A stretch of 64,000 nt of DNA from NCBI RefSeq assembly GCF_034274695.1, contig NZ_CP128362.1, positions 3,102,501 to 3,166,500 of the forward strand, written 5' to 3'. This stretch comes from Chitinophaga sp. LS1. Lineage in GTDB: Bacteria > Bacteroidota > Bacteroidia > Chitinophagales > Chitinophagaceae. Below the pieces are notes generated by a model. It did not search any database. It saw nothing but the letters and a program-made list of their open reading frames with translations, and was not told the DNA's origin. Shown here piece after piece: positions 41,656-50,417 of the stretch. The first letter of the stretch is position 1. The number at the start of each line of letters is the position of its first letter. The position numbers and the translations under genes were made by a program.

Positions 41656-42319
41656 TCAAATTCGCGCGATAATAGTTGTATAATTTCCATCGGGGTCAAT
41701 GATGAATCGAATTGGGTTAAGATTTGCATAATTATATGGCGAATACCTTCTTGATTTCTCACATAACAAGTCTACCCATTGCCGTCTGGATATCTGCACT
41801 TCATACATCCTTCCACCGTAATCATACCAATGAAGTCCCTTCTCATCCAAAAACTCCTTCTGCTGAATTTCCTTGCCGTTATATTGTAGCAAATTTTTTT
41901 AGTATCCGGCTCCTTTCAGCTCATTACTACTAATCCCAGCCATCGTCAATCCAAATGGGTAATAGTGAGTTTCTTCTAACAGTGGTCCACTATTGTGAGA
42001 TATAACAAGATTGTCGAAGTAGACATTTTCCCTACTTTCATTGCTTGTATAAATATAAACAAATCCTGTTTTTTTAATAACGAACTTCTCTACCGTCAAT
42101 GTTTGTAATTCATCAGGATTTCCCTGTACCTGTTTCACACCACTATTATCATCTACCATGTTGAACAGGTCGTCAAAAAGTACATAGGTGAGATACGCCC
42201 TGTGTTTAGTGGCAAGGTTCTCATCAGCATCCTTGCTGATCAACTCTTCGTACTCACTGGATGTATATGCTGACAAAATAGCGGAATTTGTACCTGCAGC
42301 CGCATGCGTACCATCAGAG
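41656..42319 (-). pseudogene. RHS core fragment A (left part), no intact tip
   Basis: The frame 'GTHAAAGTNSAI...VKKTGFVYIYTSNES...LLEETHYYPFGLTMAGISSNE' stops at 41899, then continues in another frame with 'LQYNGKEIQQKEFLDEKGLH' and 'RRYSPYNYANLNPIRFIIDP' before ending at 41656. This is the conserved RHS core, frameshifted and degenerate ('RRQWVDLL' for the usual RW-V-VDPL). Almost nothing follows the DPDG motif, so the toxin tip has been lost. The 5' part lies 8 kb away at 50311-50417, split off by the nested ISL3 element. Confidence 0.88.
42313..42319. repeat. target-site duplication ATCAGAG (left)
   Basis: ATCAGAG at 42313-42319 matches 50311-50317. Uninterrupted RHS cores (for example 62605-62611) carry the motif once in the same context, confirming insertion of the intervening DNA. 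Confidence 0.9.
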
Positions 42320-42428
42320 TGCTTATTCCGAGCAAAGTTTACCAGCATTCTGCTTTAAACCGGCTCTTCGTCAATTTTGGTGGAAATTTTCAATGGTGTA
42401 ACTTGAGTTGAATGTGTGATCAGCCCCA

Positions 42429-43889
42429 ATGAATTCAAAAAATCTCATATTTGAAAGGAGTGAAGCTTTTAATATCAAATCAATTATACAAGTACAAAAT
42501 ATAGTATACCTTAATGTAGAGAGCCGATTGAAAACTGCTAAATGTCCTAATTGCCAAAGGAAAAGTGGTAGTATACACAGTTATTACTATAGAAAGATAA
42601 AAGACTTACCATCATTTGGCAAACAGGTATGCATAAATCTCTTGACAAGGAAATTTTATTGTAAGAACAATAATTGTGAAAAGAAAATATTTTCGCAACG
42701 TTTTAACGAGCAATTCAAGCCTTATTCCCGTATGAGTGAACGGCTTGCAGCAATACTTCTAAAAACAGGATTATTGACTGGGGGAAATGCGGGAGCAAGG
42801 CTGTGTAAACTACATAATGTCAGTGTTAGTGCTTCTACTATCCTTAGAAATATACATAAAGCTCCTATTATAAAACCAGAAACACCTCAAGTATTAGGAA
42901 TCGATGATTGGGCCTATAAGAAGCAGCACAGGTATGGAACTGTGCTTGTAGATATGGAAAAACATAAAATCATAGAACTATTACCGGATAGAGAAGCTGC
43001 CACCATTCAAAAATGGCTGCAGGATAATCCTGGAGTAAAAATAGTTAGTAGAGACCGGTTTTCGAATTACGCAAATGGTGTAAGAAACGGTAGCCCTGAA
43101 GCAATCCAGGTTGCAGACAGATTTCACCTATTACAAAACCTTAGTGAATCATTGAAAAAGCTTCTGGTGCGGCATTATAAAACATATAAGGGAATCATTA
43201 AGCAAAAAGACGAGGAGAAATTAGACGGGAATATTACAGTACTGGCACCAGCAGATCTGCCAAGGCAGATTACACCCAGTTATTATAATCGACAATGTCA
43301 AATGGATGAGATTAAATCCCGACATGCAAATGGTGAATCAATCAGGAGCATAGCATCATTAATGAAAATAAGTAGAGAGAAAGTGACTAACTTTCTAAGG
43401 CTTCAGGAGCCTCCAATAAGATTATCTCCTAATCAATTTTCATTTACAAAATATGCTGATCTTATCAAAAAAAGTATTATCGCAAACCCACGAATAACCT
43501 CTAGTAAGATAATAATTGAGCTAAAAAATTCAGGGTATAATGGAGGCAAGACGGCTGTTTACAATTTTATTAAAAATTGTGTACGGATAAAACCTAATGC
43601 TGATCAAGAAGAGTTGCCCAGGCAGTTATGGTCTCCTAATAAAGCATCTTTGTTATTATCTAAACCAGCATCACTGTTAAATGAAATTGAAAACAAAGTG
43701 GTAAATGCACTGTGTAAATCAGTTTCTGATATTGAGAGATCATGTCTTCTATCACGCCAATTTAGAAGAATGATCATCAAGAGAAAGGGAGAAAGATTAA
43801 ATAATTGGGTAAATAAGGCATTAAAATCTGGAGTGAAAGAAATGATATCCTTTGCGAATAGCCTTCTTTCAGATTTTGATGCCGTTAAG
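42429..43889 (+). pseudogene. ISL3 transposase, N-terminal part (interrupted)
   Basis: The N-terminal zinc-binding region ('CPNCQRKSGSIHSYYYRKIK', 'KFYCKNNNCEKKIFSQRF') and DDE-type core ('PQVLGIDDWAYKKQHRYGTV', 'VSRDRFSNYANG', 'IQVADRFHLLQNLSESLKKL') are intact up to 'LLSDFDAVK'. Past 43889 the frame runs into IS21 and stops at 43952. The last ~44 codons are at 50113-50246, so the gene was split by insertion and is likely inactive. Confidence 0.93.
43885..43889. repeat. target-site duplication TTAAG (left, IS21)
   Basis: TTAAG at 43885-43889 recurs at 50113-50117. Removing IS21 plus one copy restores the ISL3 frame 'DFDAVKNAMLLEWSNGQVEG'. Confidence 0.92.
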
Positions 43890-43897
43890 TGTCTAAT

Positions 43898-44133
43898 ACG
43901 GAGGTCATTGGGCCAGCCCCAACGGAGCATACCGGGCCAGTCAAAACGGTGATATTGGGCCAAAATGAAGGTATCCTATTGGCCTAAAACGGAAGTTACT
44001 GGGCCAAAAACCACCTTCCACTCTTTAAAACGGAGATCATTGGGCCAAAACAAGTTTAACCTCTGCTTAAAACGGAAGTCGCTGGGCCAAATTAATCGAT
44101 AACCGTAGCTAAAAACGGAGGTCATTGGGCCAC
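43898..44133 (+). repeat. IS21 left-end array of ~18-bp repeats
   Basis: About seven copies of ACGGAGGTCATTGGGCCA and variants recur at irregular spacing. Three inverted copies lie at the right end (50041-50106). These are the multiple transposase-binding sites of IS21 ends; the spacing and degeneracy exclude CRISPR. Confidence 0.85.
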
Positions 44134-44178
44134 TTTCCATGATTTGCAATAGTCTTGTACCTAAAAAGCATTAGGTAT

Positions 44179-44940
44179 ATGGCGGGTCAAAGAATCAATG
44201 TCATGGAAGTACGTACATTAATTTCACTGAAACAGAAAGGCTGGAGTAACCGTAAGATTGCGGATTATATTAAGATCAACCGTAAGACTGTAGACAGTTA
44301 CATGGCCCGCTTTAAAGCATTGGACCTGTCATGGGACGCTTTATTGCAGCTGGAAGATACCGAGCTTGCAGAATTGTTTACAGAGGATAGCCAGACAGAG
44401 AAAGAACGCTATGAGACACTGGCAGGTTACTTCAGCTACTTTGAAAAAGAACTACTGAAGCCGGGTTGTACACTTGGAGCATTACACCAGGAATACCTGT
44501 TAAAACATCCGGATGGTTATCGTTACACACAATTTTGCTGGCATATACGACAATGGAATAAAAGAACCACACCAGGTGGAAAACTGCTACATAAGGCCGG
44601 CGATAAGCTGTATGTAGACTTTTGTGGAGATAAGCTTTCCTATGTTGATAAAACTACAGGAGAACTCATAGCAGTAGAGGTGTTCGTGGCAGTGCTGCCT
44701 TGCAGCCAATACACCTTTGTAAGAGCTGTATCTTCACAGAAAAGGGAAGATCTGATCTCTTGTTTATCTTCCTGCCTGCAGTGGCTTGGAGGAGTCCCAC
44801 AAGCTATTGTATCTGATAATCTCAAAAGCGCAGTAAGTAAAGCTCATAAATATGCTCCACTGATCAATAAAACATTGGCCGATTTTGCTCTTTTTTATAG
44901 TTGCGCGGTAGACCCTGCTCGCCCATATCACCCTCAGGAT
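44179..44940 (+). pseudogene. istA: IstA transposase (IS21), N-terminal part
   Basis: The N-terminal HTH ('LKQKGWSNRKIADYIKINRK') and the DDE catalytic core ('KLYVDFCGDKLSYVD', 'GVPQAIVSDNLKSAVSK') run to 'YHPQD' at 44940, where the RIT insert begins. The C-terminal half resumes at 48449 in the same frame (with one GAT removed). The rejoined protein would be about 514 residues, the usual IstA length. ATG 44179 is used as start; a TTG at 44155 is possible. Confidence 0.93.
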
Positions 44941-50005: not shown

Positions 50006-50040
50006 TTTTTAATCAATACCCGTAATATTGCAATGGAAAG

Positions 50041-50106
50041 TGGCCCAATGACTCCGTTAACCCTGGCCCCATATCCTCCGTTTGGGCCGGACCAGTATCA
50101 CCGTAA
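50041..50106 (-). repeat. IS21 right-end repeats (three copies)
   Basis: TGGCCCAATGACTCCGTT, TGGCCCCATATCCTCCGT and a third variant are inverted copies of the left-end transposase-binding repeats. Confidence 0.8.
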
Positions 50107-50112
50107 TAGACA

Positions 50113-50246
50113 TTAAGAACGCAATGTTGTTGGAATGGAGTAATGGGCAGGTTGAGGGGCAGATAAATAAATTGAAAACAGTCAAAAGACAATTGTATGG
50201 AAAGGCAAGTTTTAATTTATTGAAAAAAATGTTAACCATTCAATAG
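50113..50246 (+). pseudogene. ISL3 transposase, C-terminal part
   Basis: The frame 'KNAMLLEWSNGQVEGQINKL...RQLYGKASFNLLKKML' with stop TAG at 50244-50246 is the highly conserved ISL3 C-terminus (catalytic Glu in 'NGQVEGQINK'). It rejoins the part ending at 43889 after removal of IS21 and one TTAAG. Confidence 0.93.
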
Positions 50247-50310
50247 CCTTATAAAAATGCAGAACTTTCCACCAAAATTGACGAAGAGCCAGTTTACTCC
50301 GGAATATGCA

Positions 50311-50417
50311 ATCAGAGATAGTGGAAGAACTGAATGCCTGTACAAGTGCGGCTAGCATACTGCTTGTGGTCGTACCGGTGGTGCTGGCTGCCGTGCTTTT
50401 ATAAAGTGCTTTGACCC
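50311..50417 (-). pseudogene. RHS core fragment A (right part)
   Basis: The - strand reads 'YKSTAASTTGTTTSSMLAAL' and 'VQAFSSSTISD', then the TSD, and continues at 42319 with 'GTHAAAG'. This is the same piece as in cores B and H. No start codon of its own. Confidence 0.88.

What the first reader, a model, noticed from the sequence alone, without database searches (positions are those of the whole stretch)
42313..50317. Four-level nesting: RIT inside IS21 inside ISL3 inside an RHS toxin core
Each level has readable ends. RHS core A is split by an ISL3 element with TSD ATCAGAG. The ISL3 transposase is split by IS21 with TSD TTAAG, and excision restores 'DAVKNAMLLEWSNGQVEGQ'. IstA is split by a three-recombinase element between 'YHPQD' and 'KALVERSVELVYQ', with GAT on both sides. 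The order of events is therefore RHS decay or capture, then ISL3, IS21 and RIT last. Such a fully dateable stack is unusual.
Basis: seen in the sequence. Interest (0 to 1): 0.85.

Follow-up and report, generated by a model that had tools for sequence, protein, structure and literature searches.

The report
Mobile element that hunts transposase genes
A small bacterial jumping element (a RIT, three recombinase genes) sits at the active-site codons of another jumping gene, and its copies in this genome still carry six-letter footprints of earlier sites, which gives a testable picture of how this poorly understood kind of element moves.

Summary
The nest is real: RHS-type gene (7-bp TSD) > ISL3 (42320-50310) > IS21 (43890-50112, TSD TTAAG) > RIT. 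Nesting alone does not date the layers.

The better finding is why the RIT is there. The genome holds four near-identical RIT copies (one SNP in 3476 bp). Three split istA of IS21 at the same codons, YHPQD|KALVE, just before the catalytic Glu codon, in both orientations and in IS21s only about 70% alike. All three IS21s of this type found here are split so; six related istA loci in five other genomes are not. Two diverged RITs use the same site.

The mobile unit is the recombinase segment E plus a 20-bp palindrome P, with three variable hexamers. At copy B, two relatives lacking the RIT show one hexamer, ACACGA: native, beside E. The foreign hexamer beside P equals copy D's native one; copy A's foreign hexamer equals copy B's native one. 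That is the donor footprint known from SE and Tn554; a 2023 paper's table marks RIT movement as not tested.

Of 36 RIT loci examined, 25 had an identifiable site; 17 lie in transposase, IstB, recombinase or intron-RT genes, 10 of them IS21. One hexamer (y of copy A) does not fit simple inheritance.

The parts
42313..42319 (.). left 7-bp TSD of ISL3 (ATCAGAG) in an RHS-type gene
   Evidence: pieces overlap by 7 bp on uninterrupted paralogues at 53204-53210 and 62604-62610
42320..50310 (+). ISL3 element with everything inside it
   Evidence: imperfect terminal inverted repeats TGCTTATTCCG / TGCATATTCCG
42429..43889 (+). ISL3 transposase, first part (continues at 50118)
   Evidence: NF033550 261 bits against cut-off 180; DDE_Tnp_ISL3, query 42429-43892
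43885..43889 (.). left TSD of IS21 (TTAAG)
43890..50112 (+). IS21 element with the RIT inside
   Evidence: ends TGTCTAATACGG / CCGTAATAGACA
44179..44939 (+). istA first part, ends YHPQ(D)
   Evidence: NF033546 164.5 bits, cut-off 160, on 44173-44940; rve domain
44934..44939 (+). hexamer x, TCAGGA: native istA target core
44940..48415 (+). RIT core segment E (3476 bp), TTATGGAAAC...GTTTCCATAA
   Evidence: four copies in the genome, one SNP
44957..44969 (+). inner repeat TTATGTAAACTTT; inverted copy 45009-45021; similar pair near 48333-48345 and 48386-48398
   Evidence: read; inverted-repeat scan
45074..46333 (+). ritA, tyrosine recombinase
   Evidence: Phage_integrase 90 bits; HALRH, GHAS, Y387
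46326..47300 (+). ritB, tyrosine recombinase
   Evidence: Phage_integrase 78 bits; HDLRH, GHQS, Y295
47305..48324 (+). ritC, tyrosine recombinase; residue 233 is Leu here, Arg in copies B, C and D
   Evidence: Phage_integrase 89 bits; HSLRH, GHES, Y297; SNP at 48002
48416..48421 (+). hexamer y, TCCTGA (reverse complement of x)
48422..48441 (.). palindrome P, TTATGTAAATATTTACATAA, second module of the mobile unit
   Evidence: at all four copies (in D with 5 bp next to y altered) and exact in a RIT 62-68% identical
48442..48447 (+). hexamer z, ACACGA: foreign footprint, equal to the native hexamer of copy B
48448..49231 (+). istA second part, (D)KALVERSVELVYQ...
   Evidence: Mu-transpos_C_2 on 48479-49231
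49268..50005 (+). istB
   Evidence: NF038214 224 bits, cut-off 200
50113..50117 (.). right TSD of IS21
50118..50246 (+). ISL3 transposase, last part
   Evidence: 529-aa frame after IS21 removal
50311..50317 (.). right TSD of ISL3

Best explanation
The innermost element is a RIT transposon whose recombinases recognise a short site in the catalytic region of the IS21 istA gene. The mobile unit is E-y-P: the three-gene segment E and a 20-bp palindrome P, held apart by a 6-bp core y. A copy is thought to circularise by joining the outer end of P to the outer end of E, carrying the 6-bp core from the donor's E side; it then recombines with a target core. The target's own hexamer stays beside E and the donor's hexamer is left beside P as a footprint. 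Shown here: unit boundaries, native x and foreign z at copies A and B, the hexamer matches D to B and B to A, site specificity for istA. Inferred: the circle, which strands exchange, replicative copying, E flipping relative to P, and that Rit proteins do it. The surrounding ISL3 and IS21 layers are ordinary insertions.
For: Four copies, 1 SNP in 3476 bp. Three of four at the same istA codons, in either orientation, in istA genes about 70% identical at DNA level. Three of three IS21s of this type in the genome are split (5 further, distant istB-like matches were not examined). Six istA loci in five relatives read through the site. L041 (62-68% identical RIT) and L042 (63-71%) at the same istA codons. 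Copy B: G013 and G004 carry the empty site with ACACGA only; for G062 the same follows from BLAST coordinates. z of B = GCAGGA = x of D; z of A = ACACGA = x of B. P is present in all four copies and exact in L041. E-P spacing is 6 in 24 of 24 loci where P was assigned, out of 36 examined.
Against: y of copy A is TCCTGA, not the TCCTGC of its proposed donor B (one mismatch); it equals the reverse complement of A's own x, which needs conversion after insertion. In copies C and D E is reversed relative to P, so a second step or a second mode of integration is needed. P was not assigned in 12 of 36 loci. I placed the arm boundaries by eye. In A-D the two core bases next to E (GA) never vary, so six rather than four variable bases rests on other RITs and on analogy. 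No circle was observed; donors could be lost copies with the same hexamers. No mobility data.
Confidence: 0.8

Rival explanations
1. The RIT entered one IS21 once and the IS21::RIT composite then spread with transposase supplied in trans; the same codon position in A, C and D is shared descent, not targeting.
For: IS21-A and IS21-C are nearly identical (3 SNPs in 1665 bp, 0 in 384 bp).
Against: D's IS21 is only about 70% identical to A's while the RIT is identical but for one SNP. A and C have opposite E orientation and different y and z. L041 and L042 carry diverged RITs at the same codons of other istA genes. Composite movement for the A/C pair alone is not excluded.
Confidence: 0.08
2. P is not part of the mobile unit but an older, separate mini-insertion or scar that marks istA, beside which E inserts.
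For: A P-like palindrome without E (one mismatch to P) lies at C1:1279605 between two IS66 tnpB halves.
Against: At copy B the relatives' empty site has neither E nor P. Apart from the four RIT copies, that one-mismatch site is the only better-than-control match in the genome; the remaining one (3 mismatches) is at control level. P at 6 bp was assigned at 24 of 36 RIT loci.
Confidence: 0.07
3. Plain cut-and-paste with a heteroduplex core as in Tn916, no fixed direction: the donor hexamer ends up on either side at random.
For: Two recorded transfers with clear direction are few; D's three hexamers are identical and C's can be read in more than one way.
Against: At A and B the native hexamer is beside E and the foreign one beside P, as in the biased SE and Tn554 transfers (PMC10214605, sections 3 and 13 read).
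Confidence: 0.2
4. A chance stack: four independent insertions in a decaying region, with nothing special about the innermost one.
For: The region is full of RHS fragments and IS elements.
Against: Same codon hit three times in one genome and in two other bacteria.
Confidence: 0.03

Closest known systems
RIT (recombinase in trio) elements, e.g. of Cupriavidus metallidurans CH34
   Same: Three adjacent tyrosine recombinase genes, about 3.5 kb, terminal inverted repeats, an adjoining palindrome, several identical copies, insertion in transposase genes (IS66 tnpA, a Tn6049-like transposase) or radC (PMC3414803 section 11 read; PMC2864759 passages).
   Different: Those passages describe end variation and the palindrome without explanation. 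Here the variation is three hexamers, the palindrome travels with the element, and istA is a repeated target; 'IS21', 'istA' and 'istB' do not occur in PMC3414803.
Strand-biased circularising integrative elements (SE)
   Same: 6-bp core; native hexamer at one end, donor hexamer as footprint at the other; site selectivity (PMC10214605, sections 3 and 13 read).
   Different: SE have intA, tfp, intB and srap; this element has three recombinases only and a separate palindromic module.
Tn554 family
   Same: Tyrosine recombinase transposon with a 6-bp donor footprint (as described in PMC10214605).
   Different: tnpA, tnpB and a non-recombinase TnpC; no P module mentioned in the sections read.
GInt elements
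   Same: Several recombinase genes acting together (PMC5385486, passages only).
   Different: Four genes and large cargo islands.
IS21 family (IS5376 IstA, 8b4h and 8q4d)
   Same: The target: IstA of a relative aligns to it, with the Glu of KALVE at catalytic E233.
   Different: The IstA of this window is split by the RIT.

Membership tests
RIT element | three adjacent tyrosine recombinase genes in one direction, A-B-C | tested here: met
   same order in L041 and L042
RIT element | relatedness to documented RIT recombinases | tested here: met
   tblastn of RitC hits C. necator H16 pHG1, 41.5% over 99%, a plasmid named for rit elements in PMC2864759
RIT element | length about 3.5 kb and several identical copies | tested here: met
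   E 3476 bp, unit 3502 bp, four copies
RIT element | short overlaps (4-8 bp) between the genes | tested here: inconclusive
   ritA/ritB overlap by 8 bp; ritB and ritC are 4 bp apart
RIT element | catalytic motif in all three proteins | tested here: met
   HxLRH, GHxS and Tyr in each; the first Arg and Lys were not scored
RIT element | two CB domains in RitA, extra C-terminal helix in RitC (PMC8138268) | not tested
   no structure was predicted
SE / Tn554 | 6-bp donor footprint on one side | tested here: met
   copies A and B
SE | gene set intA-tfp-intB-srap | tested here: not met
   E holds three Phage_integrase proteins and no fourth gene was seen
SE / Tn554 | circular intermediate, no empty donor site | not testable with these tools
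   needs DNA from the living strain
IS21 | istA + istB above curated cut-offs, terminal repeats, short TSD | tested here: met
ISL3 | transposase above NCBIfam cut-off, terminal inverted repeats | tested here: met
ISL3 | 8-bp TSD (recalled, from no call) | tested here: not met
   7 bp seen; one base may have changed, or the recalled figure may not hold for this subgroup

The most novel reading that the evidence does not exclude
RIT elements are site-specific hyperparasites of other mobile elements: their recombinases home to the conserved catalytic codons of transposases and partners (IstA Glu and second Asp, IstB Walker B, IS66, IS110, group II intron RT, serine recombinase), sites that are multicopy, harmless to lose for the cell and unable to drift. 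They move as a two-module unit, E plus a 20-bp palindrome, and each insertion stores the hexamer of its donor, so jump genealogies can be read from one genome.
Probability: 0.5. Interest if true: 0.75.

Novelty: new member of a known kind. Interest (0 to 1): 0.62.

Why it matters
RITs have been known for over a decade, yet a 2023 paper's table (PMC10214605, Table 1) still marks their target specificity, empty site and movement as not tested. This genome supplies what was missing in silico: a multicopy set with mapped ends, an empty site in relatives, native and foreign hexamers told apart, and a repeated target. It predicts the joint of the circle and the product of the next jump base by base. 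If the targeting rule holds widely, RITs are natural brakes on IS elements, silencing the transposase at its catalytic codons, and a source of recombinases that find conserved coding motifs.

Tried and rejected
GAT as a TSD of the RIT: rejected, the hexamers differ. P as a free-standing mini-element: a genome scan with up to 3 mismatches gave 6 sites (the palindrome counted once per strand) against 3 for the reversed control pattern; four are the RIT copies, one is C1:1279605, one is a 3-mismatch site at control level. Simple inversion of E to turn A into C: rejected as a single step because z differs; two inversions, or integration of a B-type circle through its y joint, both fit and were not separated. 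Searches of relatives found few RITs: DNA search, 2 of 148 genomes including the own one, the other a weak partial hit; RitC protein, 2 of 248 including the own one; RitC alignment at a strict cut-off, 2 of 395 including the own one. Genome contigs gave 4 loci. Plasmids gave 538 and 521 records, of which I fetched 22, chosen for spread, plus 3 of 8 phage-collection contigs, so the target tally is not a random sample.

Loci fetched but without a resolved target: L043, L044, L049, L050, L056, L076, L081, L085, L086, L087, L088 (11 of 36). Without an assigned P: L043, L044, L049, L050, L051, L052, L053, L056, L074, L085, L086, L087 (12 of 36). L090 and L091 were fetched and not analysed further. 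Structure prediction, fold search and the search for homologous proteins were not used.
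Full report
WHAT WAS CHECKED. The finding describes RIT inside IS21 inside ISL3 inside an RHS-type gene. All three junction sets are there. ISL3 is 42320-50310 with a 7-bp TSD; IS21 is 43890-50112 with TSD TTAAG; taking IS21 out gives an open 529-aa ISL3 transposase. Family searches support ISL3, IstA, IstB and three tyrosine recombinases.

THE INNERMOST ELEMENT IS ONE OF FOUR. The window lies in an unnamed 8.67-Mb single-contig genome. It holds four copies of the RIT: A (window), B (41 kb), C (4021 kb), D (4274 kb). The 3476-bp segment E, TTATGGAAAC...GTTTCCATAA, is identical in B, C and D; A differs by one base. That base, window 48002, makes RitC residue 233 Leu instead of Arg. 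In the alignment of seven RitC proteins five of the other six have Arg and one Ser, so copy A may be weakened (inference).

IT SITS AT ONE SITE IN ISTA. A, C and D lie in istA between YHPQD and KALVE; C and D are in the opposite orientation to A relative to istA. The IS21 of D is 69-71% identical in DNA to that of A. Of the three IS21s of this type in the genome (istB 100, 100 and 74% identical) all three are split; five more istB-like genes at 25-28% identity belong to other IS21s and were not examined for RITs. Six istA loci in five relatives (G007, G030, G045, G051, two in G074) read YHPQDKALVE or YSPRD-free equivalents of the same element type through the site, and G007 has the whole istA as one 514-aa ORF. 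That IstA aligns to IS5376 IstA (8b4h, 8q4d), with the Glu of KALVE at chain position 233, the catalytic E233 of PMC10122671 (passages). Thirteen bases separate the target hexamer from that Glu codon. RITs 62-71% identical, in a Bacteroidales MAG (L041) and in Marinilabilia salmonicolor (L042), sit at the same istA codons (Pfam of both halves).

THE UNIT HAS TWO MODULES AND THREE HEXAMERS. Beside E, after 6 bp, comes P, TTATGTAAATATTTACATAA. In istA sense: A = TCAGGA-E-TCCTGA-P-ACACGA; C = TCAGGA-(E reversed)-TCGTGT-P-GCAGGA; D = GCAGGA-(E reversed)-TCCTGC-P-GCAGGA, its P with 5 bp changed to match the target's left flank; B, in noncoding DNA = ACACGA-E-TCCTGC-P-GCAGGA. I call the three hexamers x, y, z.

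WHICH HEXAMER IS NATIVE. For B, genomes G013 and G004 have the empty site: the flanks meet with ACACGA alone, no E and no P (in G062 the BLAST coordinates say the same, not printed). So x is native, z = GCAGGA is foreign, and GCAGGA is the native core of D. For A, keeping x gives the Gln of the relatives, keeping z gives His; so x is native, z = ACACGA is foreign, and it is B's native core. The simplest genealogy is D-type donor to B, B-type donor to A. The same rule, target hexamer at one end and the donor's left hexamer at the other, is described for SE and Tn554 in PMC10214605 (sections 3 and 13 read).

WHAT DOES NOT FIT SIMPLY. y of A should be B's TCCTGC and is TCCTGA, the reverse complement of A's own x. 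Across loci x equals the reverse complement of y in 6 of the 18 loci where x was read, and also in L076. Together with D's altered P this suggests that E can invert between its two ends with conversion of the core (inference). C is explained in all three hexamers by a circle from B (E-TCCTGC-P-ACACGA) that integrated through its y joint, or by two inversions after a normal insertion; the data do not choose. P lies on the ritC side of E in 16 and on the ritA side in 8 of the 24 loci with P, including both sides for one family (L083, L084), so flipping seems general.

HOW GENERAL. I examined 36 RIT loci: the four copies, L041-L046, L047-L056, L059, L074-L088. P was assigned in 24; in all 24 the gap to E is 6 (22, 2). 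Caveat: boundaries were placed by eye, and palindromes of 20 bp with at least 8 of 10 pairs occur at 0.076% of positions in fifteen of the loci (149 of 195,852, the P sites themselves included); L075's P has 7 of 10. An insertion site could be named in 25 of 36: istA 7 (A, C, D, L041, L042, L054, L055), istB 3 (L074 and L075 by Pfam, L046 by eye), IS66 2 (L045, L078), IS110 3 (L051-L053, one strain, one half of the gene each), group II intron RT 1 (L048), serine recombinase 1 (L077): 17. Others: AAA ATPase (L079), strawberry-notch helicase of plasmids 3 (L080, L083, L084), ArdC-like (L082), lysozyme-like (L047), ExbD (L059), noncoding (B): 8. Several are not independent (same genome or strain) and the plasmid loci were picked for spread. 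In the two Ruminococcus albus loci the core is the two codons after the second catalytic Asp (DNL; D187 by the alignment of the relative's IstA, carried over by motif). In L075 the two halves meet at IstB profile positions 159-160, reading LLILD|DWG, the Walker B motif (motif name recalled). In L048 they meet at RT profile position 122, TPQGG (recalled as a conserved RT motif). In L045 the site follows the NNAIER motif of the IS66 transposase (its Glu recalled as catalytic).

A SECOND NEST IN THE SAME GENOME. The other RIT of this genome (L045, 38-49% identical) lies in an IS66 transposase gene, and its P is itself interrupted by a group II intron: Rfam RF02012 and RF00029, RT ORF with RVT_1 and GIIM. 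Behind the intron come TAA and AGTGGG, the rest of P and a z equal to x.

COMPARED WITH WHAT IS KNOWN. It is a RIT by gene order, size, relatedness and termini. The 2012 description (PMC3414803, section 11 read) already has the length, 'sequence variation at the ends', an inverted repeat with an overlapping palindrome, and RITs in a Tn6049-like transposase; PMC2864759 (passages) has RITs in an IS66 tnpA and in radC. So RITs in transposase genes are not new as single cases. What I did not find described: the hexamer rule for RITs, P as part of the moving unit, E flipping against P, and the repeated istA site. Searches behind this: in a library that lacks most subscription papers; Ricker et al. 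2013 is cited there but not held, so priority is open.

VERDICT. The stack is real but as a stack ordinary and not strictly datable. The RIT layer is worth attention: a site-specific element with a readable jump history, and a concrete hypothesis for how RITs move and choose targets.

Noticed in passing
L033 (C1:1275500-1281500), palindrome at C1:1279605-1279624: A P-like palindrome (one mismatch) without a RIT joins two IS66 tnpB halves head to head, both seemingly cut at the same codon (read by eye). It looks like the junction of a rearrangement between two RIT insertions.
   Followed up: partly
L045 (C1:8599000-8611000), about 1890-4323: A group II intron with an RT gene sits inside the palindrome P of a second RIT, which sits in an IS66 transposase gene; an RHS-like ORF lies at 41-1087 (by eye).
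   Followed up: partly
window 48002: The only SNP among the four RIT copies changes RitC residue 233 from Arg to Leu in the window copy.
   Followed up: partly
window 41800-42319, 51524-51697 with 53021-53266, 57898-58025, 62236-62728: Several paralogous RHS-type fragments lie in tandem; one appears split by an IS3-like pair of ORFs (51714-52667, 52627-52959, by eye).
   Followed up: partly
L020 (copy D), about 6265-6284: Copy D's palindrome has 5 bp replaced by the reverse complement of the target's left flank, as if strand exchange or repair reached 5 bp beyond the core.
   Followed up: partly
L019 (copy C): IS21-C is truncated on its istA side: identity with the window copy stops 384 bp before E (window 44556).
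   Followed up: partly
G000 C1:8587282-8587327 and C1:7202138-7202181: Short matches to the ISL3 left end only (93-96% identical, 44-46 bp): possible end remnants or mini-elements.
   Followed up: no
window 43910-44131 and 50042-50069: IS21 carries seven GGGCC repeats at its left end and two inverted ones at its right end, probable IstA binding repeats.
   Followed up: no
L083, L084, L080: RITs on three different plasmids split the same kind of gene, a strawberry-notch-family helicase; in L083 and L084 P lies on opposite sides of E.
   Followed up: partly
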